Shown here in pieces: positions 1,434 through 61,300 of a stretch of 64,000 bases of DNA; position 1 is the first letter of the stretch, and every line of letters starts with the position of its first letter. The position numbers and the translations under genes are program-made. Source of the stretch: Tribonema minus (lineage: Eukaryota; Sar; Xanthophyceae; Tribonematales; Tribonemataceae); assembly GCA_017506865.1 (NCBI GenBank), contig JAFCMP010000184.1, positions 38,799-102,798 on the forward strand, read 5' to 3'. The notes under the pieces are model-generated. The model worked only from the letters and a program-made list of their open reading frames with translations, did not search any database and was not told where the DNA came from.

Positions 1434-2754
1434 TGTTCCTTTCGCTTGTGTCGGTCAGCACTGCCGAAGTTCAATTATCGATTGAAGTTGAACTCTTACA
1501 AGGTGTTTGTTTTGCAAAAGTTGTGACGACTTGATGGGCTGGTGTGCCTCAGGCATCGGGGTCGTGAGCTTCAGTCTCCTAATACTTCCTCGGCACACTG
1601 AGTGCTTTCATTTTGCCACTGGAGGACAGCTCAGGAGATTCACTACAATCATGCCAGCAGCTGTGGCAGTGCCAGTCGGGACCGCTGTGTGCTCCGAGCT
1701 TGCCCAGGTTCGACTCAATGTGCGTTTCAGCAATGGTTTGCTCCTCGTTGCAACTCATGTGCTGTGCTTGGCCGAGTCGATCGAGGAGATCCTTTGTTGG
1801 GCACGCAGAGCGTGAAAACCTGGCAGGCATGCAGCCAACTCGCCAGTAGTGCATCTGACATTGCTACTGCTGATTATTTGAAGCGGTTCAACATCTGCCA
1901 CTTGCCTCTCAGGAGGTGCTAGATGGAATGGCGGCGCCTGATTGGCGGAAGAATGCACATGGACAGGTGTGTCACATAAATTACGACTAGGTACCTGTTT
2001 CACAAAGCCATGGATCCATAAAAGTATAACGTGTTTGTTGCAGGCTGCTGGCCACTTTTACTGGAATGCTAAACAGGCTGGCTGTTGCTGCTTTTGATTT
2101 CGACCAGGTTATCCTGTGCAGACACCACGATCATGATCTAAGGAGTCAGCACTTGAGGTCAGCAGGCATGAAGCTTTGTTGCATTGCATGTCCGTGCCTT
2201 ATAGTCAGACAGCCACGCTGCTAGTCTGTTCAGGCCACAAACATGGGGAATCACGATGGGATCCATGTCGAGACTGTCTTCAGACTTCCGTGCAAGTTCT
2301 GGATCTCTCGGCAAATCTCATGTAGAGCTTCTCATGCAAACCTGCACGGCGCTGACTGTGCTGCCTGGTGCTCTTAGGGGCGGGAGGGGGGGGGCGGGGG
2401 GGGGGGGGGGTGTAGCCATTGTAAGTCATCAGTGTGACCAGTTCTGGCTACTCAGCTTCGCAGCCTCTTGACACTGCTCAGCCCATCCGCCGCGGCACCT
2501 GCACTGGGTGGCGCTTATGGGCGAGCCGGGGGCAACAGTCAGTGCTCAGATGCTATGATCAACTTGTCGTGGCAGCTATGCAGCCGCGCAGCCTGCTGAC
2601 AGCAGCGCTCAACCCGGCCGCTGCCGCATAGGCACTGGCTGGCGCTCGCGGCTCGCGCCGGTGTGTTGGAAAGGGAGTAGGTATAGCCATTACAACGTCA
2701 GTGCTCAGCCTTTTGACTATCCTCAGCTTTGTCTTTATCCGCTGCTGACGACAG
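1434..2754. other. intergenic or 5' region of the kinase gene
   Basis: No exon could be placed with confidence. Exon 1 of the kinase begins after an acceptor at 2751-2754, so at least one further 5' exon should lie here or further upstream. A frame starting at 2256 is one candidate, but it runs into a poly-G tract at about 2389-2410 and shows no family resemblance. Two degenerate copies of the exon-1 acceptor edge are annotated separately. Confidence 0.4.
2500..2665 (+). repeat. two degenerate copies of kinase exon-1 acceptor edge
   Basis: The true exon 1 opens with ACTGGGTGGCGCTGGCAGG near 2756. Related strings occur at about 2503-2535 (CACTGGGTGGCGCTTATGGG, then a GAGCCGGGGGCAACA-type stretch) and at about 2633-2660 (CACTGGCTGGCGCTCGCGGC). 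Both are followed by sequence recalling the exon but lose the Walker A coding. They lie upstream of the real exon, as do all acceptor-edge copies in this window. Confidence 0.55.
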
Positions 2755-5700
2755 TACTGGGTGGCGCTGGCAGGCGCGCCGGGGGCGGGGAAGACCACAG
2801 TCTGCGCGGGCGTCGCGGCCGCGCTGCTGTCGAGGGGGGTAGGTACGGCCGTGGTGGGTATGGACGGTTTTCATCTCTACCGGCGGGAGCTGGACGCGAT
2901 GCCGGACCCAGCAGAGGTGCGTCTACTTCAAGTTGAAGGAAGTACTTGCGAGTATCGTCTTTGAAGCAGGTGTGCGTCCATGTAGCTCTGCTTCTGACAG
3001 GTGCTGTGGAAACCCTGGGCGCCAAGCGATGGTGCTTTGTTGTGCGTCGTTCGTTATCGCATTGTAGAGTTGTGTTGGAGGGGGGGGGGGGCACAGCTGT
3101 ACACGACTGCCGTTCTACTGCATGCATGCGGAGCCAAAGTTGGTGTGTCAGCATCACAGTGCTCAGCGTCACAGTGTTTGCATTTCTGCTTGTACAGTTC
3201 GAGGTTCGATTGCGGTTCAGTGAGTGCTATGTACCAGATTGGTTTGCGCGCTGACCCTTCCGCGCTCTGGCTTTCCCGAGCACGTCATAATTCCTGGTCG
3301 TTTGGCCGCGCATGTACAAAGCTTGAGCACTGCCATAGAACTCCGGGCCACCATGGCTCAGTGGCGCGATGATGGTGCACATGCCGCCGCAGCCACAAAA
3401 GTTCAAAAGTGAAGTACGCAAATGTTTTTTGCCAGACTGAGCCGTGCGCAATCGCACCCCACAAGGGCGCATGCATGCAGTCTCACTGTTGGACTATCAT
3501 TATTCCATTATGAAGTAGATGCTTCCAAGTATTGCTACGCATTGTTGTGGAAAGTGCTCTCAACAAGCGTATCCGACACGACGCTCACCGTCACGGCATG
3601 CATGCCGCCACCGCTACTGCTGCCAGGCGCACCGCAAGCGCAGCGCTCACTGAACGTTCGATGCCTACAAATTCGCGATGTTGTGAGAGGTACTGTCAGT
3701 CAGTAAGCATCGCCGCCGCTCACTGTCGTGGCATGCATGCCGCCGCTCGCTACCGCTGCCAGGCGCGCCGCGAGCGCTACCGCTGCCAGGCGCGCCGCGA
3801 GCGCTGCGCTCGCTGGACGTTCGATGCCCACAATTCCCGATGTTGCGAGAGGTACTCTCAGTCAGTAAGCATCGCCGCCGCTCACTGTCATGGCATGCAT
3901 GCCGCCACCGCTCCTGCTGCTTCCAGGCGCACCGCAAGCGCGGCGCTCACTGGACGTTTGATGCCCCCAAGTTCCTGCAGCGGCTGCGTGAGGTGCGCGC
4001 AAATGGCAGAGGTGCTTTTCCGTCCTTTGACCACTGTGTGGGAGACCCAGTGGAGGACGACATTGTGGTGGGGTAAGTCACACTTGAACTTTGGCTTGCG
4101 CTAGCTCCAGTCCATGCTGTGCAAGCACCGTGCAGACAGCAGTGTGATGGCGGGGCAGCTATGAAGTTGCAGGCTTAGTAGTGAGAAGTTTCAAGTGGTA
4201 TTCTCTTCGTTTCCTTTGGCCACATGTGTGTGGTAATAGTGACTCTTGAAACTTCAAGCAAGTTTGGCATTGCAGCACTAGCCACAAAACCATGTCGTTC
4301 ACTCATATTGTGCGAATATTGTGCAGACAGCAGTGTGACAGCAGGGCAGCTATTTTAAAAATACTTTCAAAAGATGCAGGCGCAGAATGAAAAGCTGTAA
4401 CTGGTATGCTCTTCGTCTCTGTTGGGCACTGATGGGACGTTGTGGTGGTAAGAGTCACTCTTGAAGTTTGGCATTGCAGTGCACCACAAACCACGCATCC
4501 CGGCATCAAATGTTCCCTGTTACTGGTTTAGCAATGTGACACATGCTATGTCACAGCGGTGCGCACGGTACCCCACAAGTAATGTGCTTCAGCAGAAGCA
4601 AGTAGACTGCACACTTGTGAAGCACTCAGGATACTCGTCGCTTTCCCTTCATGGCACAGTTTCTAGCGTCGCGTGCAGCTGAGCAGTGGTCTTGCGCACA
4701 CATTGATCCAGTTACTGCCGCCATTGCATGCACTGACCTTCACTGTCGGCTGGCCTATTCAGTACCGCTGTAGCAGGCATTTCAGGGTAGGCATTCCATC
4801 AAACGTTCATCATGCATAAGGTTGAGGGCCAGTTTTTGCTTCGTGGCACTAGAGTAGAAGCTACTGGCTGGATGCTTTCCGCTTCCCGGAATGCAAGCAA
4901 TATATTGCAGCTTGTCGGCGTTGCCAAACAGCGGTGTCTGTGCTTGCCTGCCCTGCTTTCAGCCCAGAGCGCCAGGTGGTCATCGTAGCACATCAACCTT
5001 TCTTCTATGTGTCTTCCAATGGCACTTTCCTTCACTCACTGCAGGGAGCGCTATTTCAGCATCGTCAGGCAATTCAGTGTTGGCACGAGTGTCTCGGATT
5101 CAACTGAGGACCGATGTTGTGAAGCTAGGCGCAAGGACCGAAGCTACGGTGTTCACGAGGTCGCATGCTTCAACGGTTTCGGCTTTCATAATGCAATCTC
5201 TCGCAGGTTGCACGCGTTGCTCACCAGCGGTGTCCCCGTTTGCCTTCCGTGTACTCAGCCCAGAGCACCAGGTGGTCATCGTGGAGGGCAACTACCTGCT
5301 GCTGAGCGGTGATGATGCGAGCCCGTGGAACGAGATTCGGCCGCTCTTCGACCAGGCGTGGTTTCTGGACTGTCCGGAGAGCGAACGGCGGTTGCGGCTG
5401 GTCAAGCGGCACATGCTAACAGGGCTCTCCAAAGAGGTACAGTGGCGCATCTTGTGCGACGCATCTGGTGCAATGTTCAAAATGAACGGCGATTACGGCT
5501 CATCAAGCGGCACATGGTCATTGGGCTGTCCGAGCAGGTTTGTTCACAAGTCTTGTTCTGTGAAGGATAGACCATACTTAAATGGCGGTTGCGGCTGGTC
5601 AAGCGGCACATGGTCACTGGCCTCTCCGAGCAGGGTTTGCGCGTCTTTTTTGTCAAGGATCGACCACACTTGGATCGGAATGAGTCAAAGATTGTAGAGC

Positions 5701-6819
5701 TCTAATAAGTGACAAGGTGTGGTGAGCCATCGAGTTAAATACCTTCCACCAATGACCATGGTCGCCGCTGCTGCGGCAATTGGACACGCGTCAAACAGTG
5801 CCACCACGGTACGGCTGGTCAAGCGGCACATGATTACTGGGCTCTTCGAGCAAGTGTGTTCACGCGTCTTGTTCTGCTAGTAGGATTGTGACCATATAAT
5901 GTTGTCTTGGCAAAGATGTTTCACAGATGAACCAGCACCGTAAAATTGTGCGAGTGAGTAGGTGAAATCACGAACTGGTGCCTGATTGATGGGAAACTGT
6001 GCGACTGCGGTCGCTTTGTAGGGCAGGTGGCGAATGGCGCACATCAAAGCAGACATCTGGACGCTTCTGAGCATGTAGTGTCTGCAGGATTCACCCGAGA
6101 GCCTCATTGTGAGTACAAACAGCAGATTTTTCATGAAACTCTTGGTATGTTCAGAGAGCTTTCACAGCTGCTTGTTGATGAATGGGTTGCGACGACGCAT
6201 GCAGTCTGGCTGGGCTTCACAAGGAGGATCAAAGCTTTTACGCCAGTGAATGTGAACCATTGACCTGTTGTGTCACGCTTGAACAGACCATGCGTGGGGG
6301 GAGTCAAAGCGCAGGTAGGTATCCAGACCAAAAGCTGATGTGCAACACATCTGGAAGAGCACGTGCTTTCAAGCAGCTGAACTCTTTGAAGCTACAATGA
6401 AGCCGATGAAAGTCCCTGAGAAGTACGGCAGACCGAGTGCAAGCTTGCGTCACTGCAGCAGTAAAGAACAGAATGCAGTACTAGTGGCAGCACAGGTGCG
6501 CCGCTGCTGCCCCATATGGCACGCAGCAGCATGCCTCAGCTGAGCAGTGATGTGCATCGCTGAGCCATGCCGCTGAGTACTGGAATGCCGGACTACTGGG
6601 TAGTATGCGCTGTACACCTTCTGAATGATGCTGTTGTTTCAGAACAAGTCAACGGCCCGTTATGCTGACACCACATTTGCCCCTCTCGCTGCTCCGTGCG
6701 CGCAGGCCGCTGAACTACGAACTGAGGACAACGACCTGCCCAACGGCGCCTTTATAGTCAGCCACCTCGACAGGGCGGCTGTGGACAGAGTCATCAGCAG
6801 CAGCAGCGAGGGACCCTGA
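2755..6819 (+). CDS. P-loop nucleoside/nucleotide kinase family protein (YFH7/uridine-kinase-like), spliced
   Basis: Four exons read continuously: 2755-2916, 3927-4072, 5259-5436 and 6706-6819 (TGA), 200 codons with stop. Exon 1 carries the Walker A motif GAPGAGKTT and then MDGFHL, the acceptor-site motif of this family. Exon 2 carries RGAHWTFD and SFDH..GDPVEDDI. Exon 3 carries VIVEGNYLLL, followed by a DCPE..RRLRLVKRH lid segment. Exon 4 carries NDLPNG near the C terminus. These are the successive signatures of the fungal YFH7/bacterial FrcK-like branch of the uridine kinase/PRK superfamily, which phosphorylates small hydroxylated substrates. The true substrate cannot be told. Donors are GTGCGT, GTAAGT and GTACAG, and all phases match. 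A 5' exon with the start codon is missing, since exon 1 opens after an acceptor CAG. The introns are filled with copies of the flanking exon edges. Confidence 0.85.
3590..3926 (+). repeat. tandem copies of kinase exon-2 acceptor edge (pseudo-exons)
   Basis: The real acceptor at 3921-3926 is preceded by GGCATGCATGCCGCCACCGC and followed by GCGCACCGCAAGCGC. The same block recurs at about 3594-3680 and 3731-3860. In the second block a 24-base acceptor segment (CGCTACCGCTGCCAGGCGCG plus flank) is itself doubled near 3757-3802. Each large copy carries acceptor, exon start (CGCTCACTG.ACGTTCGATGC) and then intron-like sequence ending GTCAGTCAGTAAG, so each looks like a decoy exon with both an acceptor and a possible donor. 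None keeps the full exon-2 frame. Confidence 0.8.
4196..4482 (+). repeat. copies of kinase exon-2 donor edge in following intron
   Basis: The true donor region reads ACATTGTGGTGGGGTAAGTC followed by ACACTTGAACTTTGGC. Related strings occur at about 4222-4275 (GTGTGTGGTAATAGTGACTC, then TTTGGCATTGCAG) and about 4435-4480 (GACGTTGTGGTGGTAAGAGT, then CACTCTTGAAGTTTGGC). They are part of a larger imperfect duplication of about 180 bases that also repeats GCAGACAGCAGTGTGA at 4131 and 4323. Confidence 0.6.
4954..4998 (+). repeat. copy of kinase exon-3 acceptor edge
   Basis: The string TTTCAGCCCAGAGCGCCAGG at about 4957 repeats the true acceptor CTCAGCCCAGAGCACCAGG at 5255, followed in both by TGGTCATCGT. 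The copy then diverges into a non-coding stretch. The upstream flank (GCGGTGTCTGTGCTTGCCTG against GCGGTGTCCCCGTTTGCCTT) is also shared. Confidence 0.75.
5490..5880 (+). repeat. three copies of kinase exon-3 donor edge
   Basis: The last coding bases of exon 3 (CGGCTGGTCAAGCGGCACATG and the following GGGCTCTCC) recur three times downstream: at about 5497-5560, 5582-5655 and 5808-5880. Each copy has the same exon end, an acidic or Gln codon and a GT-containing intron start (CAGGTTTGTTCACAAGTC, CAGGGTTTGCGCGTC, CAAGTGTGTTCACGCGTC). Translated, they would read LVKRHM..GLSEQ or similar, which makes them decoys for the true donor at 5437. Confidence 0.8.
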
Positions 6820-8013: not shown

Positions 8014-8076
8014 GCTGGCCGACAGTGTCGGCACTCCACTGCTGTGTCCAGGGGATTGCGATGTAGCGTCGTCGGC

Positions 8077-8082
8077 ACACAC

Positions 8083-8114: not shown

Positions 8115-8116
<2 letters not shown>

Positions 8117-14460: not shown

Positions 14461-17400
14461 TCACAGCACCCCCAACGACGTGCGCTCCGCGACGCCGAGC
14501 AGCGCCACGGCCGCCTCCCTATCCCCCTCGCCCAGCCCCCCTCCCCCTGCCATCCCCCTGAGCCACTTGACAACCTCCCCCCCGCCGGCGTCCCCCAACT
14601 CCCCCCCCGCCCCCGGGCTCCCCAGGCAGCACACCAGCACCGCCAGCACGGCGCTGCGGATCTCGGCGTGCGCGCTGTGTTTAAATGTCCACGCGAAGGC
14701 GAGCGCGTCGCCGGGCACGGGCGGCGGCGCGCCGCAGTCTACGAAGTGCGCGAGCGCGAGCAGCATGCGCGCCAGCAGCAGCGCCGAGTCGGAGTGGCCC
14801 CAGAGCTCCTTGCTGCAGTAGCGGCGGCGGCGGCGGCGGCATCAGTGGCGGCAGCGGCGCACGCATAGTGAGAGTGGGTGCGTGCGCTTTCGTGACTGTG
14901 GTGAGATGATGTATTGCTGCCAAGATGTGCTGGGGGCAGCGGCGCGTGAGCATTGGGGGGAGGGCCAAGCCAAGGCCCCAGCTCACTCTCTCCTGCAACA
15001 GCGAGAGTGATGCAGAAGCCTGGTGCGCACACCGATGACATCGAACAAGACAAGCTGGAGCAAGACAGGCCTGGCAGTTAACAGAACATACCATTGCCAG
15101 CATCGTAAGGACAGCAGGGGGGCGGCGGGGGTAGTGGGGGGCTGGAGAGGGGGGGGGCTGAGGGGAAACTCACCGTGTCTGAGTGGCTGCAAACCCCTGC
15201 ATGAGTGGGTACGCAAATGCCGCCGCCACGGCGCAGAATTTGTTGGGCACTGCAGACGAGGCACAGTAGGCAAACAATTGGGCGTACGTCAGAAAGGCGC
15301 TGCAAGAGGCGTATAAGCAGTGAATGTTAAATGCATCTATGTATATGCTGCACACCAGCGGTTTATGTCGACAACATTGGGGCCATGCAAGTCCAACGTG
15401 GTCTGCGGCGCATTGACACACAAAAGGCTGCACTGTCACAGGTTATTGACTGGCTGCCACTGCGGTACTTGTTTGACATGTCACGTACGCCGTCGGCAGC
15501 GCATGCTTCGCGACGCAGCTCACCTGGTTTTGGGCCCGCCGATCTGGAGCTCGGTCCCCACCGCCGCGTCCTGCAGGCAGTCGGCATACGGCAATGGCAC
15601 CAAACAACACATGCGCACGTGACTGATGGCGCGGAGTAGCAAGGATTTGCGAAGCCCAAATCATTGGCAAATTGCCGGAGCTGACAAGGGTACAGCGCAC
15701 AGCGCACACACCAGAGCGCTGCCACCTTTTTGCCAAAGTTCAGCAGCGCTCGCGAGCATGGTCACCATGTCGTACTCACTGCCTTGCTGTGTGCTCGGCG
15801 CACAACCGGTGTCACCGCGTCTCACTCACCGCCCTGCTGCTGTCTGCTCTGTGCGCTTCTATGCATGGAAGAAAGGGCGTACATCTGCATGAAAGAGGCA
15901 CATTTTAATGGAAGTGCTTTCTGCTCAGCGCAATGCGGTCCTCAGTCTGCCCTGCACAGCAGGTTTTTTCAGCCTTCACTTCACTTCCAGCGCGCTTTTA
16001 CCGCCACACTCACCTCTCTGCTGACGTCACAGCAGTCCCTCCGTTCGCTTCGCGTCGCGCCTGCAGCCGTGAGCTGACGACGCTGTCGCCCGCTTTGCGA
16101 CGGGAAGTTGAAGATTCAAGTTGAACTTGCGGTGGTCCGCCGGGAGCACCGGGCCTGGCCCTCCCTGCGAGTTCTTGGGCAGACAGCGACAGCACCTGAG
16201 ACGAGGAAGAACAAAGAGAACGAGCCATGGTTCAAGTCAGTCTTGGCACATCATGCCCCTTGGCATCGTCTTGTTGAGAGTACATGTAAACTCGGATCAT
16301 GTACATGTAAGATTGAGTGCATTGGTGTTGGGGTGTCAAAAGCGGTACGCGCCTGGTCAAAGTGCAGAACGCGTGCAAATCTGTAGGTCATGGTTGAGGT
16401 GCACATGCGATAGCTCGTCGCACTCGCACAAGCCCCGTTGACTCAAAGGCTTTGCCACCTCTGAGTTTGAGTTTTCTTCCAATCTTGACATGGGGAGGCC
16501 ATGTGCATGCATACCGTAACACTCACACGCGTGCATCCCGCCCCATGCATGACACGCTTGCAGTTTGGAATGGGCGTGGTGCGGCTGTCCAATGTCTATA
16601 ACCAAAGTGATGATGACCGTGCAGCAACTTCACAGGCGTTGCGCTCTTGACAAATATTGCGCCGCTTGGTCGCCTCTGGTAGCTTCAGCAGGCGGCTGTG
16701 TGAAGCTGTCATCAGACAGCTCTTTGAACACCATTTTTTCAATTTGTAGCACTGCACAGAACCAGAAACAAACAGAAGATACACTGGCTTCTTGACAGCT
16801 GCCATGTGGAAGTTTCTCCCTCTGTCCGCGCCAATGGCGCAGCAAACAAATTGCCAAATCCGAATTATATTGTACATCAAGCCTGCATGCCATGCTCTTC
16901 CCTGTAAAACTGATTTAAACTTAAAAGAAGCAGAGGCGTGCCAACTTCAAAGATGACGTGCCGCGTAGGAGACTCGCACCTGCAGTATCTGCCGCTTGGC
17001 ACCAGTGGTGGTGCAGCTGTCAAACAGCTATGAAAATGATTGAAACAGATCAGAACAGAGGCGTGCCAACTTCAAAAATGACATGCCGCGCATGACTCGC
17101 ACCTGCAGTATCTGCAGCTTGGCGCCAGTGGTGGTGCAGCTGTCAAACAGCTGCTCGCACAGGAACTGCACCGCTGGCAGCGGCGCGCACGCGCATGCCG
17201 CCACCATCGCTCCCGTCTGCAGCTCCTGGAAATCCTGCTTGCCGATACGTGTTGGCAGAAGCAGGGAGCAGGCGGGAGAGAGAGCGCTCAAACGTATAGC
17301 TCGCTTGGAGGGGGGGGGGCGGGGGGGGGACCCCTGCCAGCACCACAAAATTCTTATACCCTAAATGGGTGAGAAACCAGCAACGCAGCATGCATGCACG

Positions 17401-20400
17401 TAGTGAGCATCCGGCGCATCCATCACATCTGGTTGCGGACGGAAAGGACTGGCCTCACATTCAGCATAGGCACAGCAGGATTTGAACGCTCGTACAGTTG
17501 TTTTGGCTGCACTGATGTCTGAACATGTCATGACATTTGTTCAGCAGTCTCCTGTACGTCCGAAAAGTGTCCGACAGTATCGATCAGGGGCTCCGATGCG
17601 CACTCTGCCTACCTCCATGAACAAACAGCGTCGCAAAAAGGCATCTCCCCCCCCGACTACACCCTCGTCCATCTGTCCCCCCCCTGAAGACTCTGCCATG
17701 TGTGTCATCACAAGCCAGGTGTACGCCATGTGGAGCGCTGCCGAGAGCGCTGAGCGTACGCGCGCCAGTGCTATGCCTTTCAAACTGCTACAGTATGTAC
17801 CGCCATGGCGACGCGATCTAGGGACTGTTACCCATTGACACCCTAAACGGGTGAGAAACCAGCTACACAGTATGCATGTACGACAACAGCAGCGGTGCAG
17901 TCCCAGCCAGCGCATGCGCTCCCGCCGCGCTGCTTTGGCTGAGCACTGCATCCTCTGAGCGTGGCTATATACACACCAGAGCCTACGCACTAGAGACCCT
18001 AGTCGATCGATAGCCACTCGAAGATTGGATGTGGTCGTTCGGTTCACCCCCGCTTTGGCCGAGCGCTGCGGCCTCTGAGCGCTGCTGCGCGCACGCCAGA
18101 GCATACGCACTAAGTAGAGGCACTGGTCGATCGATAGCGACTTGAACATTTGATGTGGGCGTTCGGTTCACAGCACTCACTTGCGTGCAGCGGACTGATG
18201 TCGCAGTGTTTTTGGTTGTGTATGGGTGTTTTGGCTGTACTTGTGTCCGAACCATCCGCACATTTATTGAAAACTCTCCTAGTTGTCCAAAGAGTATCCA
18301 AACAATTCAATCACGGGCTCCGATGCACACTCTGCTTACCTCCATGGCGAAGCGATCGTCGAGGTACAGCAGCTCGCGGAGCAGCTCGGGCGTCCTCTCA
18401 AAGAGGTCCGCGGGGCGCAGGCGCGTCAGCCGCTCGACGCTGCGGAGCGCTGCCGCGTGCGAGTCGTAGTCTGAGTCGTCATCGCGCCGCCGCAGGACTG
18501 TGCGCGCGGGCGACGAAGGACACAATGCGAGTAACAGGTGGTGAAGATTATTGACAACAGTGTCGAGCGCTAATGGGTATAAGGATGGCGAGTGTTATGA
18601 GCCGCTCGATGCTGCAGAGCGCTGCTGCGTGCGAGTCGTAGTTGGACTCGTCGCCGCGCCGCCGCAGGACTGCGCGACGCAATGGAGGAATATGTCACAG
18701 GTGTTGAGGATTGGTGGCCACAGTGTTGAACGCACTGTTGGTGACAAATACCAACAGCGATACAGGGTGTGCTGTGTGGGACCATAGCAGCTGCGCCATT
18801 CAGCACCGCTGATTGATAATCAGCACACTGGAACACTGCTGCACAGAGTGAGCCAGATGCGCTATTCATAAGTATGTACTCCACAAAGTCCGTATTGCGC
18901 AGTAGTGTGTAATGTTAAACTCAACGGCAAGCGACAGCACGTGACCGCGCTGCGCATCTCTGTGTTGGCGCAAGGGTGAACGCCGCCAGACCGAGGGCAA
19001 CAAACGAGACAACGGCTTTATGCATTGGCCCATTGTGCGCGGTATCAAGTCGGAACACCGCTTGCGGCTCACCCTCAATGGCCTGGTGCAGATACAGCGG
19101 CGCCAGCGGCTTGCCCTTGACCGCCGTCGCGCTGTCCTCTGTGATGTCGTAGGGGCGCAGCAGGCCGTCGCCGCCGCTGTCGCCGTGCGCAGCGCCGTTT
19201 GTGTCTGCCCCTTCCGCCGCACCCGCCGCCTCTGGCACAGCGCCAACATGCTGGCAGCACGCGTGACACGCACAGTGTCGGGTTTCAGTACGCGCAGTGG
19301 TGCATGTGCCTGAGGCCACGGAGCATGCTGGCGACATGCGCGACGTGCATGGTGTGACGCGCACAGTGTCGATGGGGGTTTCAGCAGGTGCAGTGGTGCG
19401 TGTGCCGGAGGTTACAGAGTAGTCACCGGCACGGTGATCTCGAAATAGGCTGAGCACTGTGGACTGAGCGCGTGGCTCACTGCAATGGTGAAGTACCGCA
19501 CTTATGATCACAGCGGCGCGTCATGAGGGTGTGGCCTTGTGCAGCTGCAGCCCCGGCCTGCAGTAGCGATGGACGGCGAGGCGGCAAGCGCGTGACACGC
19601 GAAGAGCAGCGCCACCTACAGCGGGTGCGCGCAGTGACGGTGATTTGGCCACGCCCCCACACGCTGCCGCCGTCACCCCCTGCGTGGAGCTCTGCCTGGC
19701 CATCACAACATCCCGCCACCATCATGGATCGTGCACAGCAAATACAAAATCAGATCTACAATCCACTGCACCATGATACAACTTCGACCTTGCCGCGTTT
19801 ACCCGTGAGCACCGAGCACTGCTGTCGCTGTTGCACATGCAGTGTCATGCACGAGCTGGCGGCCCGTACACGTTTCATGCGCACACTTTGAGCGTATCTT
19901 TTAACTTGTGACTTGTTTTTTGTGTGACATGAATCGCTGCGTAAGCCTCGAGTGCACAATGTCACATCACATTGAATCGAGCACTTCTCAGCCACAAACC
20001 AGCATCGCAATCACCTGAGCGCTGCAACTGTCGTAGTCGGCGAGGGGTCCCTCTGCCTGCACCAGACCAACCCGCAGAATAGATCTTGCAGTGGTGATCC
20101 TGTGGTCTCTGAGCATCAATGTTCACTCTGCAGCTGCAGAAGCATGCTGCAAGAGTACCTGAACGCGTCCACTGCCATCACCCCCTAGGGAGCCCGCTGC
20201 CTCAATATGGTCCACGAAACGGAGCTTGCCGTGGTGATTTCTGTGCTCGCTGAGCACAAATGTCCATTGTGCAGAAGCATGCTGCTACTGAGCACGAATG
20301 ACGGTTGTGCAGCTGCGGAGAGGGCGTGCTGCAAGTGTACCTGACTGAGCGCTGCCACTGTCATCTGACCGCGAGGGGCCCTTCTGCCTTGTATCTTCTA

Positions 20401-23400
20401 CATGAATACCGTCGTTCCCCAGACCGCCTCGCAAAGTGGAGCTTACCATGGTGATCCTACATGTACCCTGGAGTATGTATTTATGAGCATAAATTGTTCA
20501 ATGAGCATATGTATACATCTGATATGCAGCTGCAGTGTCGTGCTGCGCAAGTACCTGAGCACTGCCACTGTCATTGCCTGCGGGGAGTCCCTCTGGCCTC
20601 AACATGGTCCACACATGAACAACGCAATGCGCCCGACCACCTCACAAAATGGAGCTTGCCATGGTGATGCTGTGTTCACTGAGCATTGCTGTCGCTTTCG
20701 CGCATGCAGTGTCATGTGGCACAAGTACCTGAGCGCTGCCACTGTCATCTCCCGCGGGGGGGCCCTCTGCCTGCCCTCGCCGAGACTCCTCTAGCTCATC
20801 AAAGTGCACGGGTTCGCCGACGATCTGGGACAGCGCCTCGCCGACGCGCATGCCCTGCGGTTAGGGTTTGAGATTTGTAGTTGAAGTTGCGGTCAGCTGC
20901 GCGCCATGCGGAGCGTCACATGAGGTCGCGCCTGCGGTCGCGCTGCTGTGCTTTGCCCACGTGTCAACAGCAGCCAGAACGCGATGTTATTTGTATACTT
21001 CAAAGTATGCAACTTGAAATGAGACACCTACCAGTGCTTCAAAAAGCTCTGACGTGCCCTGCAGGCACGGACTCCCAGCTTCAACTTCAACGTCTTTGTA
21101 CCACGTTCCTCTTTCCAAACATTCTTGGTGGGTCACCTGACAAAGTAAAGCTCGAGGTTGGATTATGCTGCGCAATGTTTTGGACTATTTGATAGTATCG
21201 TGCGTGCCGGTTGTGATTGAATTGCGCCAGCAACACGTGCCCCTAGTCGTGGTTCATTGTACGCGGACGTCGGACTGCAACATCAGCAGTGCTCAGAAAC
21301 GTATTGCGTAACCCCCTGCGGGCGCTGGGCCTCAGAACGAGTGCCAGTTTTTTTAGCAGTAAGAGTAGGGGTACTACTCGTTCCCACAACAAGGAGTACA
21401 TAGTATTTTGTCACTCGTGTCGTCATTCAATGGTCACAGGAGTAAATCAGTAGTACTCTTGTAATTTTTCAAATTTTTCGCGAGTTATTCTTGAAAACTC
21501 GTGCACACTTTGGATGTCTCAAAGGAGCACTTCATGAGTACTATTAGTCTGACGGTGAATCATTTCGAGTGCTGTAGCTTGCCGTGCACGATACATACTG
21601 GCTCCAGCAATAGGGCATGTGTCAGATGCTTCAAAACAGCATTTTTTCAACACTTTGATTACTCTCGGCTCTCTTTGCTTGTGAGACTCGTGGTTCACTC
21701 AGGTACTCGTCAAGTACTCGAGCACAGTACTCATGTTTGTTTTGAATGTCAGTTCCAAGGGGAGTAGTCCTCTAATACTTGTGTGGATTTTGGCTTTTCA
21801 CCAGGGCAGTGCCATGTAGTGAGTGAAACTCGATGACTCGTGCACACATTGGACCTTCCAAAAGGAGTAGTTCACAAGTACCACTTGAGCCTGATGGTGA
21901 ATCATTTTGAGTGCTGTAGCTTGCCATGCACAATGCTGCTGACATAATACACATGCTTCGAGCCCTTTTTCGATATTCTACTAAAGTACTGTTGGCTCTC
22001 TTCGCTTTTGAGACTCAAGGATTGCTCAAGTACTCATCAAGTACTCAGAGTACTGGAACTTGTTCAAAAATTCAGTGTGGTTAGGAAATAGATATTCCAA
22101 TAGTAGTGTGTTTTTTCTTTTTGACCGGGAGTAGTACTCGAGTACTCGTGTACTTCTCATGTTTTTTGGGAGCAGTACTCGAGTACTCGTTACTCGCACT
22201 CGTCCTGACTGTGGAGCACAGATAGGCCTGTACGGGCGCAACACGTACTCTTTGCGTAGTCAGAGCGCCTTTCTTGTCAAAGCAGCTCCTGTTCATTATT
22301 TGGAGTGGTGGCTAGGGTAGGGTTGAAGTATACCTGCAGGCGCTGAGCCGTGGCGGTAACTTCAAGTCGCACGCCCACGCCTCGCACCAGCAGCAGAGTG
22401 AGGTCGCCAGTGGCCATCTGCTCTGCGGTCACCCTGCTGGAGCCCGGGCGAAGTGAGCAAGCGAGTGGTGGAGTAAATGAGTGAGTTGATGCGCCCATGC
22501 CTCAGTAATGCTATAAAATGAAATGGGAGGGGGGGGAGGGGGGGGCGTTGCAGGGGGGGCAAGTTGGTGACCGAGTGACTGAATGGAGAGTCAATTATCC
22601 TCAAAAGAATTGAGTGACTGAATGGAGAGTCAACATTTCTCAAAAGAAGCACTGGCGTCGTTGGTAGCCATATGCTCGGCAGTCGCTGATAGGGGAGGTT
22701 GCGTCAACCAATACGAGATCGTTCCTGACTACTGTCACATCACCAGTATTAGTTGCAGCAGGCTGCTGCACTGTCTGTTGCAAGGTGTATTGCAAATGAC
22801 CACCAATGGCTGGTCACCATCCAATAGAAATGCTTCCAAGGTGTGTTAGACTACACTATAATCAGTAATCTGAATAAAGAAATTATGTATGACGGCGCGA
22901 TGGCTGCGTGATGGCAGAATGCATGATTAGAAACCTTGAAATGAGCTTCTGTGCCTGCATAACAGTGTGCGACTCTCGGAACGAGGGGTCGTCATGCCTG
23001 GCGATTCACTCGAGGCAGCGTCGCTATGCGTGGCGAGTCCGTCCAACAGTCGTCACGCGATAAGCTCCCGCTGCATGACGTTGCACTACAACTGGGACGA
23101 ACGATCCTCATGCCTGGTAACACCATCAAGGCACCATCACCATACCTGTCGAGCCCTTCCAGTAGGAACCGCTTGATGAGCTCCTGCTGCGTGACAGTGC
23201 ACATCTGTACTTCAAGTACTTGAAGTACAACTGAACCAAGGGATCACTGTGCGTGGTGACTGCCTCCAAGGCACCATCGCCATACCTGGCGAGTCCTTCC
23301 AGCAGGAACCGCGTGATGAGCTCCTGCTGCGTGACAGCGCACCACCATACAACTTTTAAAAACAAGGGATCACTTCTCGTGGTGCCTGCCTCCAGGCACC

Positions 23401-49698: not shown

Positions 49699-49699
49699 G

Positions 49700-50530
49700 C
49701 TCGACGCCGGACTGGTATCATACTATGATGATCCTACGCCAAGTACATGGAGCGCCATGCATCAAGGCGCACGACACCATCGTCCACAACAACGTCAAGA
49801 GGCCACGCAGCGCATCCTGCGGCAATACCTTGAATCAGGACTGGTGGACGAGGACTACACGCCGTTTCTGCGGTCCGCCGGACCGCCGGTAAGTCTCAGG
49901 ATGGACATCGTGCTGCCTGCGGACGCCTTCTCGGCGACCGGCTACGACGATTCGACACGTCACCTACCGCTCATGGTGGACATCACCTGCTTCGAGGCAC
50001 AGGTGGCGCCGCGGGCAGCGAAGACTGCAGCAGACCCCGAACGCTGCTGCCGCGACCAAGAGGCCGCCAAATACACCCACTATTCTGGTTATGATCAAAA
50101 TTGCTACAAACTTGCCACTTTGGCAATCGAGTCATTTGGCAGCATCGGAGAGCAGGGGCGGAAGCTGCTGGAGGCTGTGGCGACGGAGTATGCCAGCAGG
50201 ATGTCAGTGCCCGGAGGAGTGCGCCCTACAGCTCTTCAGGGCATCGCCCTGGCGAGCTTGCGCTCGGCACTGTCGGCACCGCTCCACATGGCGTACTCTG
50301 GCCATGTCATGACACACATGGCAGAATCCGGGGGGGGGGGGGGACATGAGGAGGACGTAGGGGAGGATCCCGAGATGCCATTTGGCGGCGGCGGCGTTTG
50401 AGTGGTTGTTGTTGAGACACTTTCAGACTGTCACACGACATGTTGATTCCGTACAGCAAGCTTCAAGTTGGATGCCATTCATCTGGGCTTTTTTGCACCC
50501 TGAGGGAGAATCAATAAAAACTACATGGAG
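49700..50530 (+). mobile_element. 5'-truncated LINE fragment, endonuclease domain and 3' tail
   Basis: Plus-strand coding to the TGA at 50399-50401 gives a C-terminal RLE-type domain (HDTIVHNNVK, then after a frameshift near 49800 EATQRILRQYLESG, MDIVLPADAF, HLPLMVDITCFEAQ, KLATLAIESFGS). The tail is GIALASLRSALSAPLHMAY and VMTHMAES. The 3' untranslated tail runs to about 50527 (AATCAATAAAAACTAC). It abuts the 5' end of the minus-strand LINE, making a head-to-head junction at about 49700. Copies of its 3' part occur at 17620-17792 and 61780-61945. Confidence 0.8.
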
Positions 50531-52385: not shown

Positions 52386-55300
52386 TTAACTGCGGAGCGA
52401 CGTGGGCGCCGCGGCAAAGGCAGCAGCGCTCATCTTGCAGCTGCCGCGGCCGCCTGGCGCAGCAGCGCCTCTGCCGCCGCCGCTGCCGCTGCTGCCGCCG
52501 CCTGCAACCCCGCCCCTGCCGCCCCCGCTGCCAGCAGCTGTGCCCCTGCCGCTGCTGCCGCCGCTGCTGCCGCTGCAGCCGCCGCCGCTGCCACCACCGC
52601 TGCAGCTGCCACCACTGCAGCCACCGCCGCCGCCGCCGCTGTCGTCAGACCCTATGGGCGGCTCTGTGAACGGGGCGGGGCGAGGGTCGAGGCCCAGCAT
52701 CCTGCGCGCCTGTTCCAGCCTGTGCTGCGTCCTAGGGCAGGGCCTGGCGTGGGGGCGGCGCGGCGGGGGCGTTTGCACGTCAGCAGTGCTCAGCACCCAA
52801 GTATGCACTTTAAAGGGGTTGGTGTGGCACTGTCTCTGTCGCTCTCGCTGTTTCGGAAACGACACGGCGAATGTCGCACGCATGCAAGCTCTGGCGTCAG
52901 CGCGATGCTCAACGCAGCGCTTTTTGCACGGCGCGCGTCCGCCCTGCCGCCTGTGTCTCAGCCGTGTGCCACGCGTGCGCCGTGGCCGCTTGGCGCGAGG
53001 GGCATGCAACAGTTGCCGCTGGTGCTGCCAGTGCGGTGATGATGGAACAGCGCAACGGTACACCATTATGAATGTTGGCATGCTCTGCGATGCTCGCATC
53101 TAGATTCAGAGGCATGTCGGACATGTGTTGTCTTGAATCACGCATGTATTGCCTGGCACACCGCGGCCGACACAAGACACGCCCAGACGCCACGATGCCC
53201 GACACTGATGCTGCGTGCTTCAACCTTCAGAATGAAGCCAAGGGAGGCATCCCATCATATGCGTGTGTGTATGCTAGAAGTATTTACATATAAATGTACA
53301 AATGTAAGTGCCCTTGCTGGTCGGTGCCACGCAAGGAGTGCTGCACACGCTGCTGCCTTTCCCAGACCTTTCCCAAAAACCTCAAACTCTCTTAAGGAGA
53401 CCTGTTCCCGTTTTGATGCAATGCATACATACCTGTTGCTGGGGTGTGTGCAGACTTGTAAGAAAACACAGCTCAGCTCTAGCTCTACGATCTTTTGATT
53501 CGTTTCCATATATATACATGAGTACATACATATACACTACGCTGTATAAAATGCACACATACCCGTTGCTGGGGTGTGTGCAGAGCCGTATAAACATGTA
53601 TACACACATACATGTATGCAATGCATACGTACCTGTTGCTGGGGTGTGTGCAGATGCCCTCAGGGACGTCGCAGGCGCCATACGGCTCCTCCGAGTACGT
53701 CCCAATGTATGCTTGCGTGTAGAAGCGTCATACTTCTTAAAGGCCGGTTCCCCTTTGAAACTTCCTACAGGCCGGTGTCCCTTTTTAATGCAGAGCATAC
53801 ACACCTGTTGCTGGGGTGTGTGCAGATGCCTTATCAATGTTTATGTATGCATACATAAATATATATAGACTACGCCGTATGCAATGCATACGTACGTACC
53901 TGTTGCTGGGGTGTGTGCAGTGGCCCTTGGGGACGTCGCAGGCACCGTACGGCTCCTCCGGGCAGCCATGCTCAACGGCCCAGTAGTAGCAGTCCCACTC
54001 GCCCATCTCCCACGCCGCGCTGGCCGTGGAACTATCCCATGGGCACCCCTGAGCGCATTCATGAATGAGTGAATGGATGAGTGAATGCATGAACTAATGA
54101 ATGAATGAATGAATGAATGAATGAATGAACGGTCCAGTGGTACCGGTCTCACTTGCCCATCTCCCAGGCCGCGCTAGCCGTGGAGCTGTCCCACAGGCAC
54201 CCCTGAGCTCGCGTTCATCGATGAGTGAACGGATGAATGCATGAATGAATGGATGAACACAGGGCGACATGCGTCAAAAAGTGGGGCATCTCTCGAGTGA
54301 GAAGAAGGCCTGCTTCAGGCATTCATGAGTGGGTGAATGGATGGGTGAATCAATTGATGAAGGCAAGCACGCGCGGATGCTGGGCACAGCGCGCAGGAGA
54401 CGTGAATGCGGGGGCTTAGCACGCACGCCGCGTGAATGCGGGGGCATAGCGCGCACGCCGCGTCCAGTGCCTTTGTTGTGTGCGCCAGTGCGCACAATAC
54501 AGCGTAACCGCTTAGTACACCTTGAGCCACCATGTCTGGAACCTGCACTGTGGCGTACATCATCACAACTTCGCGCTGTCAGCACAGCCGCTGCGGCGGT
54601 TACGGCCGCATGCTGAGCGCTGCATGTACGCTCGCAGCAGCGCTTGTACTCGCGTACAAGTACGTCAAATGCCCCTGCTGCTGCACGCATGCTGCTTTGT
54701 AAAGGGGGGGCTACAGCGCAGCACTTGAGTTTGTCAACGTCACACACATGTGCAATGTGAAGCACCGTCACACATATGCAACTACCTCCTGAGGTAGTAC
54801 ACGAAGCAAACCGCACCTGGTGGCGCAGCCACTGCAGCGCGTACAGGTGGCCGCGCAGCGCGGCGTGCATGCTCGTCTCCGCGCTCCACCCGCAGCCAAT
54901 GTCGTGTAGCCACTGCAGCACCTCCAGGTGGCCCTCCGCCGCGGCGATGCAGCAGGCGTGCGGGTCCCAGGGCGCCCTAATGACGCAGATGAAGAAGACA
55001 GAGTGCCAGCCAAGCAGCAGCACGCCCGTTGTATTGTGAGTGTGAATGACCAAGGTGCTCTGATGTACCAAAAACGCTCTCTGTTGTCGTCGGTCAATTG
55101 CAAAGGTACGGTACTATGCTGGCAAAGCAAATCTGCACGCCGGCAAAGCCAGTTGTCACGTCGGTGAACATGCACAATGCCGGTGCACATATCGCTCCGC
55201 CGCGGCGAAGCACACGCACACACACAGGCACTTGACTTGCACTGGGGAAGCAAATTTGTGCGCTGGGGAAGCAAATTTGTGCGCTAAGAAAGCAATTTTG

Positions 55301-58300
55301 TGCGCCAGCTGAGCAGCAATGCGCCCCTTGTACCATCAGTGTGCATGGGCATGCCGGCGGAGGCGCACTTCGCCGCGGCAGCCGCAGCACGCGTGTAGCA
55401 GTTGCCGAGGACCCTGGCAAAGCAGGTCGCGCACCAGACACATTGCGCTCCCCGGCACGCGACATACGCTGGATGAGGGGGAGATCACAACTTGCAGCGC
55501 GTGCCGCAGATGCCATCGTCATCATCTCAGCAGAGGATGACACACATGAAGAAGCATACTTCTACTTCCATATGTATATATATGCGCGTACGCGCTGCTT
55601 CGTGGGCATGCGCCGTGCTCCCTTGCGCATGCATGAATACCCTCGAGGGCGTTTGCACGCCGCTTGCCGCGCACGGTGACGGCGCGCAGCCGCCGCCCGC
55701 AAGCACGTGCCCAAAAGCGCTTGCCATTTGGCGTCCTTCGCCACACCGTTTCACAAGCTGCCTCGCACTTTGTCTGAGCATGCTACAGCTGGTGGTAAGC
55801 ATGCGCCCACACGCTTGTGGGTGCGTGCAGCTGCTTTGAGGTTTCATTCAAGCACACTTGAAGTTATCGTTTGAAGTTATGTATATACGTGCACTCACCC
55901 TTGTGCGTGCAGGTACTTGAGGACGTCTAGGTGGCCCTCCATGACCGCGGCCTTCACGGCCTGCGAGTTCCACGGGCACCTGCCAAGCGAGGGTCACAAA
56001 ACATTAATTCGTTTATTGTAGAACCGTAGCGCTGCGATTTGGGGTCGGCTGGTGGCTCGGCTAGGGTCAGGGTCAGTGGCATATGTTGCTTAGTGTTGAA
56101 CAGGTGGCAATCCACAATGGCAGCCTTTCACGGCCTGCAACTTCGACGGGCACCTGCCATGCGAGGGTCACAATGCGCTTCTATATGCTGGCTTGGCTAG
56201 GGGTAGGGTTGGCCACATAAGGCTAAGTACAGTTCCGAGCCGGAATTGGCTTAGACGATTCCGGCTCGTCTAAACGGAGAAGACGAAAAGACGGAATGCA
56301 CCGTCTTTTCCGTCTTTTTCCAAAACAGCATTTATTGCCTGTATAACACTCCAGCAGACATATGGCTCACGTACGATGCCAAGGCAAGAGTGCTGATGCA
56401 CCGCTACTACGTGCTGCCTGTTATTTTCACTTTTTCGGTCTAACTTCACTTCAAGTTTGAAGTGCAAGTGTGGTGCCGTTACTGTTATCGCGTGCAGGAG
56501 TGTGTGATTGGCTGTGTAGGTACCCACGAAAGCTGTGTGGCCCCTACCCGAAGTAATCAGTTGGTTCACGGTCAAAATGAACTAGGTGAAGTAGGTGAGT
56601 CGGCGTGGCAAGGCCGTCTTACACGGAAAAGACGGTCGAAGACGGTACAGCCCGTCTAGACGGAAAAGACGGACGGCGGGCTAAGCCGTCTGCAATTAAG
56701 ACGGTTTGTGGGACCGGCTCGGAACTCTAAGGCTTAGAGTCAGCCATGTGCAGCGCTCAGCACCCGGCCACGCGTCCATCACACGCCGCCACCACACTGG
56801 CCAGAAACGAGGTACACTGATTTTGAAGGAAGTACACGCTTGCCGAGAGCACATGCGATGAGCATACCGTAGATCACGGAGTATAAAACCCCCCCGTTTT
56901 AGCAAGTTGTGAGGCTCGTGTTCGGAATACGGGGGGTCTTATACAACGTACCCCCCGTCTTGCACGCGCGTGTGTGGCTGCGGTAGCATGATATCGCATG
57001 ATATAACTGCAGCACACAGCTACTCAAGCAGCAGGCCACGGAATGAACGTTCTGCAGCTCCTATTCTAGCACGCCTGGTTCAAACACGCCCTCAGCACTA
57101 CATTTCACGGCTGCAGAGGCATTGCGCAGCAACACAGCTCGCCCACCTGCTTTGGCGCTGCACCACAACTTTGTCCCTCGCGCTGAATTATGCCGAAACG
57201 ACTTGCAGTTTGCATAACTGCCATGTTCCTCTGTCTACAACCCCGGTCTTATACACCACGTGCTTACCCCGGTCTTATACAGCGTACCCCCGGTCTTGCG
57301 CGCACACACAAACCTCCCTAGGCGAACGGGGGGTCTTATACTACAGTATACGATGGGGGGGTCTTATACAAGAGGGGGGTTTTATACTCCGTGATCTACG
57401 GTAGGCCGGCAGGGTTCACACTGTTTTCTTTTTGCAGATGTGAACTTGAAGTTGAAGTTGAAGTGCATTGCGAGCGCTCACCCGTGGCTATGGATCCACA
57501 CGAGGAGGTCCAGGTGCCCCTCGGACGCCGCGGCGTACGACGTGCGCTCATCCCACGGGCACCCCATGGAGTGCAGCCACCTGCAGCGGCGAAGGCGATG
57601 ACGACAGCGGCAGCGGCGACGCAGAGCGAGCATGCATCAGCATTCTATCTGCAATACAGAATGATGCAATAGCGATAGCGACGGCAGTGTGTATCTGGGC
57701 GGCTGCTTCAGGGGCTAGCGCCGGGCACCCCATGGAGTGCAGCCACCTGCAACGCGGCAGGGGGCGATAGAGGGCCACACGTCAGCGCTCAGTACAGCGT
57801 GTGCGCGACAGCAGTTGCGCTTGAAGCCTCATGAGGAAGAGCTCCACATCCAGAAGGCTCGACGGCCAGGTGCAGTCGACAAAAGGCGATGACGGCAGCG
57901 GCAGCGGCAGCGGCGATGCAGAGCGAGCATGCAGTGGGTCAGATCCACTCTGGAGTTGACATGCGACAAGGGCAGAGTGTTGGCGCGCGGGCGGCGGCAG
58001 TGCACCCGGGGCTTGAAGGGCAAGCGCCGCCCTAAACGCCTTGCGTTTTGCTGAATTCCAAGCGCGACATTGCAAGCAGACTCAAACGTGGTGTGTCATG
58101 ACTGATTCCAATTGGCAAATGACAATGTAGGTAGTCGGGCGACGGGATGGCGTGGGGGGGGGGGGGGGGGGGGATGAGGGGGGGGGGGGGGTCCAGGTGC
58201 TCGGCATCCAAGTGCATTCGAGCATTCGACACAATCTCAAGCAGGGCCTGCTGAGGTAGGCTGCGAGAACGTTTGTCTGACAAAGCGACCTGTGAACAGC

Positions 58301-61300
58301 AGGGGTTCAGGTCTGCGCATGGCAGTGCGCAGAGTCCACGATGGCGGCATCCATGTCTCCTCATATACCTACATCAACAGGAATGTGTACAGGTCCCCAG
58401 AGGTATTTTATATTTCGCCTCAAAGCACGTTTTTCTTGAAGTGAGAACTTCTACAATCAGATCACAGGTCGCGTCACGCTGAGGCTCGAGTGAAGGGTCT
58501 GTGCTAGGGTTAGGGCTACACAGGTGATGGGGTGCGTACTCACTCGAAATGCGTTCACTCACTCACTCACTCACTCTCTCACTCACTCACTTGATCACCT
58601 CCAGATGCCCCAGAAACGCCGCGGCTTTCGGGGACCATGCGTCCCACGGGCAGCCCTCCCTGCGCAGGCGGAGAGAGCACGGCAGTGCTCAGCTTGTACG
58701 CATTGGGAGGAAAGACGGGGCCTTCATCGCGTGCGGCTAGCAGACAGCGAACGCCGCTTCTGTTTCGTATCAAATGGTGAAAGAGCCGCAGAGTGACTTT
58801 GGAGTCACTTCTGCTCCATCGAAAAAATAGCAAAGTAGCTTTAAGTTGGGAGTGAATGAAAGTCAATAAATGCATGGAATGACAGCAGCACCAGCGTGCG
58901 CATGGAGCCACTGAAGAGTGTTTAGCGCATGCTGCCTCTCAAGCATCGAGCTCAAGGCAGCGCAGGAGCTGACGCACCCGTGCAGCCACTGCAGCGCCTT
59001 GAGGTGCGCGCCGGACACCGCCGCCTCATACATTCACGTAATGTACAGGCGACATATAGAGGTAAACATGACTATCAGGTACACTTCACTTTTTTGAAGT
59101 ACTTCAAGTATATGAAGTTACTTCACGAGTAACCCACCCGTGCAGCCACTGCAGCGCCTCCAGATGCCCGCCCGATGCCACCCCCTCGCACGTCCACGTT
59201 GTCCACGGGGCACTATACGAAGTTGAGTAATTCCGGTATAATGAACCTGATCAAGCAACTATAAACGCATACTCGAAGCTGCTTCAGAAGTGCACGTGGT
59301 GACTCACCCATGCAGGCACTGCGGCGCCTCCAGGTGCCCGCCAGACGCCGCCGCCTCGCATGTCCACGTCGTCCACGGGCCGTATACAGAGTATCACGTT
59401 ACTACTGTATCAGGTATACATGCATACTTCAAGTACATGCAGTTACTTGACTCACCCGTGCAGCCACTGCAGCGCCTCGAGATGCCCGCCGGACGCCGCC
59501 GCCTCGCAGGTCCACGTTGTCCACGGGCAGTCGGCGCGCAGCGCGTCGCGCACCCACTGCAGCACGGGGATGCAGCCCCTGAGTGCCGCCGACCTGTTGG
59601 GGTAGGTAGGTAGGATACAGGGCGCAGCGGTTCCAGAGCGTTGACACATTGTGCGGGCATCTCGACGAGTCTGCGGCTGCGCAGTCTGAGAGGATGGTGG
59701 CAACACGCCGAAGACAGTGTTGTTGGCTGACTGCTTGATCAGCGTTGAGCTCTGAGGCTGTGACCGCAACTGCCGTTTGACTGGCGTCATTGAAGTGCTG
59801 AGCTTACTGCCACTGCAGCGCGGGGGGATGCAGCTCCTGGGCGCTGCCCACCTGCCGGGATAGGTACGTAGGGTACGGGGCGCAGCGCTTTCAGAGCGTC
59901 AACAGATTGTGCAGGCATCTCGACGTGTCTGCGACTGCGCACTTTTGTGCAATGACGGCAGCGCGACGCAGCCACTGATGGCTGACCGCTTGATTCAGCG
60001 TTCGGCTCTGAGGCAGCGACGGCAACTGCTGTTCGACTTCCGTCGCGGAGGTGCTGAGCTTACTGCCACTGCAGCGCAGGGATGCAGCTCGTGAGTGCTG
60101 CCCATCGGCGTAGGCATGTAGGGCAAGAGGCGCACCGATCAACGTGCGCCGGAGAGTGTTCTAGAGGCTTGCTTCCGCCGTGAGGCGCACGTACTGAGGG
60201 CTTAGGTCTACGGTCAACGCGAGGCCTGCAAATGATGAGTATTACAGAAGTATATATGCATGGAGGCCGCCCAGCTCCCTACAGATCTTCAGCATTTGAG
60301 CGTGAGACAGAAAAACTCCAACTGCAGCGGCGCTCCGCCTGCACACGTCCTCCGTGATGCGCACGCCGCGCGTGCCACTAATTTATAACTGACCTCGCCA
60401 TCTGCAATATGTGCAATATGCCCACCAACAAGAAGTAAAAAGGAGCCTACGATAGTTCTACCAACCTTCTCGGTCACGCATGGTGCAACTTCAACTGACA
60501 GTAACATGCGGTAATGCTAGGACTTCAACCGCAGCAGCAGAGCAGCAGCGCTCACCTGTATACGTCCTCCGTGATGCGCACGCCGCGCGCCACCAAAGCT
60601 TTGCAGTCATGTAGTGCAACTTTCACATGCTGCAACTTCAACTGATGTAGCACGCGCTCCATGCTAAGAACTTCAACAGCAGCAGCAGCGCAGCAGCAGC
60701 GCTCACCTGCACACATCCTCTGTGATGCGCACGCCGCGCGCGCGCAGCCACTCGCACATGTCCACGCTCCCCGCCTCCGCCGCGGTGCACAGCAACTTCG
60801 TATCGAGCGCCAGGGGGCGCCCCCCGCGCGCGCTGTCGAGCCACGCCAGCGCCGCCAGCGACCCCCCCTTGACCGCGGACCGGGCGGCCTGGGGGTCCCA
60901 GGGGAAGTCGTGCGCCTGGGGGTGGGGTGGGGGGGAGATAAGGGATGGATCGTGAAGAGGGGGACGATGCTGCGAGGGGAGCGCTTGGGGGGCTGGTGAT
61001 GTGGGGTGCGGTTGCAGAGGGGTGAAAGTGGCCTGCTGATGGTGTTATGATCCTTAACCGCCGACCGAGCGGCCTGGGGGTCCTTGATAACGGTCCCCGT
61101 AACCGCCTGTAACCGCCCCACCAGGCGTCTCAGCCCACCAAGTGGAGCTCACGCTTCTTGGTTGCGCAAGAGAGCTGTTGTCACCCCGGTGCATTGTGCC
61201 ACACAAGGCTTGCAACACCCAACGCTGCGTGCACCCCCTGTCGAATGTGACCGTAACCCTCAGTCGCGTTCAGGACGCCTGCAGCCGAGGCACGCAGCCA

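What the first reader, a model, noticed from the sequence alone, without database searches (positions are those of the whole stretch)
2500..60610. Window-wide system of exon-edge copies: acceptor edges multiply upstream, donor edges multiply downstream
In all three genes with many exons and in the kinase, I find about twenty sets of imperfect tandem copies of an exon-intron junction, totalling roughly 40-50 copies. Acceptor-side copies are in the preceding intron and donor-side copies in the following intron, without exception among those recognised. Each copy carries some tens of exon bases, the splice site and adjoining intron. This would arise naturally if segments straddling a junction were repeatedly duplicated in tandem, since the outermost intact copy stays functional. 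It gives introns built from decoy splice sites. It could be a genome-wide mode of intron growth, and the decoys might be used or must be suppressed. I know of no standard feature type for it.
Basis: partly seen in the sequence, partly recalled or inferred. Interest (0 to 1): 0.9.

Follow-up and report, generated by a model that had tools for sequence, protein, structure and literature searches.

The report
Exon-edge tandem copies inside algal introns
In this alga, short stretches of DNA spanning the border between a gene's coding and non-coding parts have been copied head to tail many times; the spare copies pile up inside the introns, lengthening them and leaving decoy splice sites.

Summary
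Copies of exon edges lie upstream of acceptors and downstream of donors: in the window (14 of 52 gene-finder edges, 22 alignments to 0), in 20 unselected 10-kb samples (35 of 191 edges; the 4 with wrong-side hits belong to two copies miscalled as exons) and in chaperonin and kinesin genes. I count 18 edges and at least 29 copies in the window, not 40-50. They belong to a wider process: direct head-to-tail duplication of about 70-230 bp, also inside introns and far from exons. The side rule follows if only the splice site touching the exon body keeps the protein intact. Copies evolve nearly neutrally, yet 42 of 56 keep GT or AG. Introns with edge copies are twice as long (975 vs 481 bp); the difference vanishes once repeat-covered bases are removed. 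Edge preference is unsettled: 26 of 38 repeat clusters touch an edge, against 35-56% in random-duplication simulations. Tandem duplication across junctions is known; this density, with introns partly built from decoy edges, I did not find in nine searches. No RNA was available.

The parts
2774..5436 (+). PRK/uridine-kinase-like gene, exons 2774-2916, 3927-4072, about 5259-5436 (more exons outside)
   Evidence: gene finder, sequence read, weak Pfam PRK match below cut-off
3591..3837 (+). acceptor-edge copies (3591-3674, 3726-3777, 3767-3837, the last two overlapping) upstream of the acceptor at 3927
   Evidence: three; two
4897..4986 (+). acceptor-edge copy upstream of the exon at about 5259
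5484..5876 (+). donor-edge copies downstream of the donor at 5436
30514..41138 (+). monoglyceride-lipase-like alpha/beta hydrolase gene; exons 30514-30674, 30875-30988, 31916-32057, 33567-33724 (GC donor), 35101-35171, 35875-35953, 37129-37276, 38612-38689, 41010-41138
   Evidence: some borders by eye; Pfam Hydrolase_4 E 1e-23 on the joined exons
31361..31915 (+). array of acceptor-edge copies upstream of the acceptor at 31916, period about 180
   Evidence: no copy elsewhere in the genome
32101..32400 (+). donor-edge copies downstream of the donor at 32057 (clearest at 32341-32379)
33904..34546 (+). four donor-edge copies downstream of the GC donor at 33725
   Evidence: four; three; no copy elsewhere in the genome
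36852..36940 (+). acceptor-edge copy upstream of the acceptor at 37129
37381..37439 (+). donor-edge copy downstream of the donor at 37276
14465..29588 (-). TELO2-like gene (exons include 29030-29588, 27958-28154, 23411-23530, 19073-19229, 18340-18497, 17103-17225, 14465-14812)
   Evidence: gene finder; Pfam Telomere_reg-2, 23.8 bits against a cut-off of 23.6, on four joined exons
23013..23331 (-). donor-edge copies downstream (lower coordinates) of the donor at 23411
16907..17029 (-). donor-edge copy downstream of the donor at 17103
18600..18733 (-). acceptor-edge copy upstream (higher coordinates) of the acceptor at 18497
53946..63581 (-). ankyrin-repeat gene (exons 53946-54019, 54817-54976, 55899-55979, 57482-57580, 59456-59593, 60707-60915, 61949-62169, 63386-63581)
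   Evidence: gene finder; Pfam Ank_4 E 3.2e-19 on seven joined exons
53553..53693 (-). donor-edge copy downstream of the donor at 53946
54128..54257 (-). acceptor-edge copy upstream of the acceptor at 54019
56102..56173 (-). acceptor-edge copy upstream of the acceptor at 55979
57722..57768 (-). acceptor-edge copy upstream of the acceptor at 57580
58959..59383 (-). three donor-edge copies downstream of the donor at 59456
59810..60137 (-). acceptor-edge copies upstream of the acceptor at 59593
60324..60590 (-). two donor-edge copies downstream of the donor at 60707

Best explanation
This genome undergoes frequent short tandem duplication: a stretch of about 70-230 bp is copied head to tail in direct orientation (shown: orientation, unit size, head-to-tail layout of young cases). 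The molecular cause is inferred; repair of staggered breaks or nicks with fill-in, or slippage, are the candidates. When the unit straddles a donor or acceptor, the protein stays intact only if the splice site touching the exon body is used, so the other copy is trapped in the adjoining intron (side rule shown; cause inferred). Further copies come from new duplications at the live edge and from in-register expansion of the array (supported statistically: nearer copies tend to be more similar, and steps within an array are more alike than between arrays). The trapped copies then drift almost neutrally, losing GT or AG at about the rate of their exon part (shown). Introns grow by this (shown as correlation) and carry strong decoy donors that splicing must bypass (strength shown, bypass inferred).
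For: Direct above inverted: 193 vs 19 pairs within 1 kb in 20 random 10-kb samples, 0 in one Markov shuffle of each; 99 direct pairs and, self-palindromes aside, 0 inverted in 42 curated introns. 66 independent arrays in 318 kb (window, 20 samples, chaperonin and kinesin loci), unit median 123 bp (IQR 92-165), unit length mod 3 spread 24:21:21. Head-to-tail in young cases: L054 alignment 151 columns at offset 146, 90%; L053 166 columns at offset 173, 86%. Side rule; with whole exons as queries, 33 downstream copies reach the donor, 24 upstream copies reach the acceptor, 8 are internal, 0 of 65 carry the far edge or the whole exon in one alignment. Near-neutral decoys: decoy-lineage singletons N79:S51 (spectrum expectation 90:40) against N2:S13 on the real-exon side; GT kept in 24 of 32 and AG in 18 of 24, against about 25.5 and 19.1 expected from the exon-part identity of 2558/2866. 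Age order: nearer copy more similar in 74 pairs against 38, permutation p 0.003. Array steps: within-array sd 31 against 49 overall, p 0.00005, on 35 of the 39 multi-copy edges. Intron length: 975 vs 481 bp median, p 0.0004; after removing repeat-covered bases 425 vs 442, p 0.73. Two arrays searched genome-wide are local only.
Against: 26 of 38 clusters touch an edge, more than random-placement simulations give near the measured unit size (35-44%), so edges may be favoured. Exon parts of copies stay more similar than their intron flanks (0.876 vs 0.551, null 0.452; exon part higher in 26 of 26 edge groups), more than the simplest neutral model predicts, although copies were chosen by exon similarity. 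Decoy N:S is slightly below neutral (p 0.037). The nearest copy is the most similar at only 20 of 39 edges (15.8 expected). BLAST pieces suggest one near-whole-exon copy in C51 (2798-2866 of the block). No HSP70 gene shows a copy visible at protein level (0 of 80 matches, judged by eye; 73 of 98 candidates scored), so the density varies. All exon borders are predicted; no transcript was seen.
Confidence: 0.8

Rival explanations
1. Edge-directed duplication: something tied to splicing or transcription (R-loops, nicks, chromatin at the exon border) makes junctions hot spots, so introns grow mainly from their two ends.
For: 26 of 38 repeat clusters in curated introns touch an edge; simulations with unit median 140 give 35-44%, with Fisher p 0.025 and 0.0027 in the two such sets (no test was run on the three sets, 37-40%). 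Copies tend to be age-ordered outward from the edge. In part of the copies similarity ends near the splice signal: the flank beyond it exceeds the null 95th percentile in only 33 of 56.
Against: With unit median 200 the simulation gives 56% and Fisher p 0.26. 12 of 38 clusters are intron-only and repeats occur far from exons. Better preservation of exon sequence inflates edge detection.
Confidence: 0.25
2. The copies are functional alternative or regulatory splice sites kept by selection.
For: Decoy donors that keep GT score like real donors (median 6.03, n 24, vs 6.07, n 51; other intronic GT -0.53; the matrix was trained mostly on real sites, with a few copies among them); 42 of 56 keep GT or AG; decoy N:S slightly below neutral; exon parts better kept than flanks; only 3 stops in 914 copied codons.
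Against: GT and AG are lost at the rate expected from exon-part identity; decoy changes are near neutral while real exons are constrained; 13 of 59 copy alignments shift the frame; decoy acceptors are weaker than real ones (3.74 vs 5.94).
Confidence: 0.12
3. Tandem alternative exons, or a dispersed repeat or introner family.
For: Copies carry splice sites and open reading frames; the gene finder sometimes calls them exons; one near-whole-exon copy in pieces (C51).
Against: No copy carries both exon ends in one alignment (0 of 65); two window arrays have no relative elsewhere in 158 Mb.
Confidence: 0.03
4. Assembly or sequencing artefact.
For: Tandem arrays are prone to misassembly; the assembly is a draft in 554 contigs.
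Against: Median identity of arrays is 78%, only 4 of 66 reach 90%; same pattern on many contigs.
Confidence: 0.02

Closest known systems
[quoted passage not shown] passages read)
   Same: A tandem duplication that includes intron end, splice site and exon start, so that splice signals are inherited from the parental junction.
   Different: There a new intron and extra exon sequence entered the transcript, in one gene; here the inferred exon structure is unchanged, the copy is trapped in the old intron, and about a fifth of predicted edges are affected (35 of 191), some with multi-copy arrays.
Rogers AGGT tandem-duplication model and internal gene duplication (Gao & Lynch 2009, Hellsten 2011; only as cited in PMC4974935)
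   Same: Short tandem duplication within genes as a source of intron sequence.
   Different: Rogers: an exonic AGGT segment creates a new intron. Here existing introns are lengthened by junction-spanning units.
Short tandem duplications from inaccurate break repair in rice (Vaughn & Bennetzen 2014; seen only as described and listed in passages of PMC7407515)
   Same: Tandem duplications in the 10-1000 bp range attributed to offset nicks and end joining.
   Different: The passages do not mention exon edges or intron growth; the mechanism is not shown here.
Minisatellite arrays
   Same: Head-to-tail arrays with nearly constant step, in-register expansion.
   Different: One end of the array is a living exon edge under selection; unit sizes are mostly longer than the classical 10-60 bp (that range is recalled).

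Membership tests
Short tandem duplication (patch-repair type) | direct orientation, adjacent copies | tested here: met
   193 direct vs 19 inverted within 1 kb; 99 vs 0 in curated introns; L053, L054 head to tail
Short tandem duplication (patch-repair type) | unit tens to hundreds of bp | tested here: met
   median 123, 10-90% 69-228
Short tandem duplication (patch-repair type) | junction with little or no homology at birth | tested here: inconclusive
   only 12 arrays at 85% or more: overlaps of 5 and 2 bases in two, -3 to -28 in five whose ends have blurred, five multi-copy arrays not informative
Rogers AGGT intron gain | new intron made of duplicated exon, bounded by the two copies' AGGT | tested here: not met
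   copies lie inside introns and carry the old junction with intron sequence; absence of the introns in ancestors not tested
Tandem alternative exons | copy with both splice sites, whole exon | tested here: not met
   0 of 65 copies in one alignment; one near-whole-exon copy in pieces, with a broken acceptor (C51)
Introner / dispersed element | similar sequences in unrelated genes | tested here: not met
   two arrays searched against the whole genome, only themselves found; other arrays not searched
Minisatellite | constant step within an array | tested here: met
   steps more alike within than between arrays: sd 31 vs 49, p 0.00005 (35 of 39 arrays)
Functional alternative splice sites | use in transcripts | not testable with these tools
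   no RNA data

The most novel reading that the evidence does not exclude
Introns in this alga grow at their two ends by duplication that is favoured at exon borders, so that an intron is a roughly time-ordered stack of dead exon edges, newest next to the living edge. Splicing here must then choose, among several donors of equal strength, the one that touches the exon body.
Probability: 0.25. Interest if true: 0.8.

Novelty: new variant of a known kind. Interest (0 to 1): 0.62.

Why it matters
How introns lengthen is mostly credited to transposons (recalled). Here, in a curated set of 42 introns, those with edge copies are twice as long as the others and the difference vanishes once repeat-covered bases are taken off; 29% of intron bases lie in local repeats, 8% recognisably copied from the flanking exon. 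Because the exon is constrained and the copy is not, each such intron holds datable pseudo-exon edges, which makes rates of duplication, decay and splice-site choice measurable within one genome. Equal-strength decoy donors at known places are a natural test of how the spliceosome picks a site. They also mislead gene finders.

Tried and rejected
Intron-specific process: in the window the local pairs looked gene-bound, but over 20 samples plus the window the coverage is 15.9% in predicted introns against 9.9% far from exons (2.7 kb of the latter's 6.9 kb is one sample, L011), so I dropped it. Selection on decoy splice sites: the first, biased count (31 of 32 GT kept) looked like conservation; the unbiased count (24 of 32) fits neutrality. 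Exon-restricted conservation: striking when copies are chosen by exon, but when chosen by flank many repeats carry no exon part (recognisable in 20 of 48, exon at least as similar as flank in 10 of 48; many of the rest are low-complexity or shifted by gaps), so choice explains part of it. Edge preference: left open after simulations. Coding selection on copies: pN/pS 0.27 against the real exon dissolves mostly when changes are assigned to lineages. HSP70 as a second family gave no copies; light-harvesting genes gave two ambiguous partial repeats (C1, C79), not counted. Pherophorin search for volvocine kinship: nothing found, and no control genome rang either, so uninformative.

Weak points of the counts: exon borders were set by me from the gene finder and by eye; several were off by 1-3 bases and corrected, and the lipase exon at 33567 was still set 2 bases short (its 3 donor copies are left out of the GT count). 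In one search one chaperonin intron was left out because an exon is probably missing in it. Random-sample exons were those scoring 10 or more; the two miscalled exons (4 edges) are still in the 35 of 191, without them it is 31 of 187. The splice matrix behind the strength test was trained on sites that include a few copies. Simulation sets had two replicates each, and those are sparser (1.0-1.4 pairs per kb) than the data (99 pairs in 32 kb); the densest set (3.8 per kb) gave 37%.
Full report
What the window is. The window is part of a 158-Mb eukaryotic assembly in 554 contigs. Light-harvesting genes are abundant (92 exon matches). One such protein is closest to chlorophyll a/c proteins in solved structures, best to 9jj8_G and to the iFCPI-4 chain of 8z11 (that iFCPI stands for a haptophyte is recalled); another matches best the long LHCI chains of 9vfj, then several kinds of algal proteins. 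So it is probably a chlorophyll-c type alga, perhaps a haptophyte; the species is not known to me. Genes recognised in the window: a PRK-like kinase (2.8-5.4 kb, weak match below the cut-off), an FNIP-repeat ORF (9.2-10.8 kb), a TELO2-like gene (14.5-29.6 kb, minus), a monoglyceride-lipase-like hydrolase (30.5-41.1 kb) and an ankyrin gene (53.9-63.6 kb, minus).

Noticed in passing
window 24353-24471 (-): A full-length 5S rRNA gene (105.9 bits) lies inside a predicted intron of the TELO2-like gene, on the same strand.
   Followed up: no
window 47426-50401: Long ORFs with reverse-transcriptase-like motifs (recognised from memory); the four scanned have no Pfam match; no local direct repeat pair there.
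   Followed up: partly
window 33725: A GC-AG intron (inferred from the reading frame) in the lipase-like gene; its donor motif recurs in several downstream copies.
   Followed up: partly
chaperonin loci: 16 of 33 acceptors used in training are followed by GT (AG|GT, often a phase-0 valine), as if introns sat in AGGT sites; may bear on how the introns arose.
   Followed up: no
G000 contigs C1/C79, C70/C489, C296/C490, C90/C179: Pairs of matches with equal or nearly equal scores, some in mirrored order: haplotigs or recent segmental duplicates.
   Followed up: no
L011 (C1:1500001-1510000): 33 direct and 8 inverted near pairs with no predicted exon: a different, perhaps transposon-rich repeat landscape.
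   Followed up: no
L014 after 5848; L017 after 3702: Donor-edge arrays with very regular steps of about 89-98 bp, closer to minisatellites than the other arrays.
   Followed up: no
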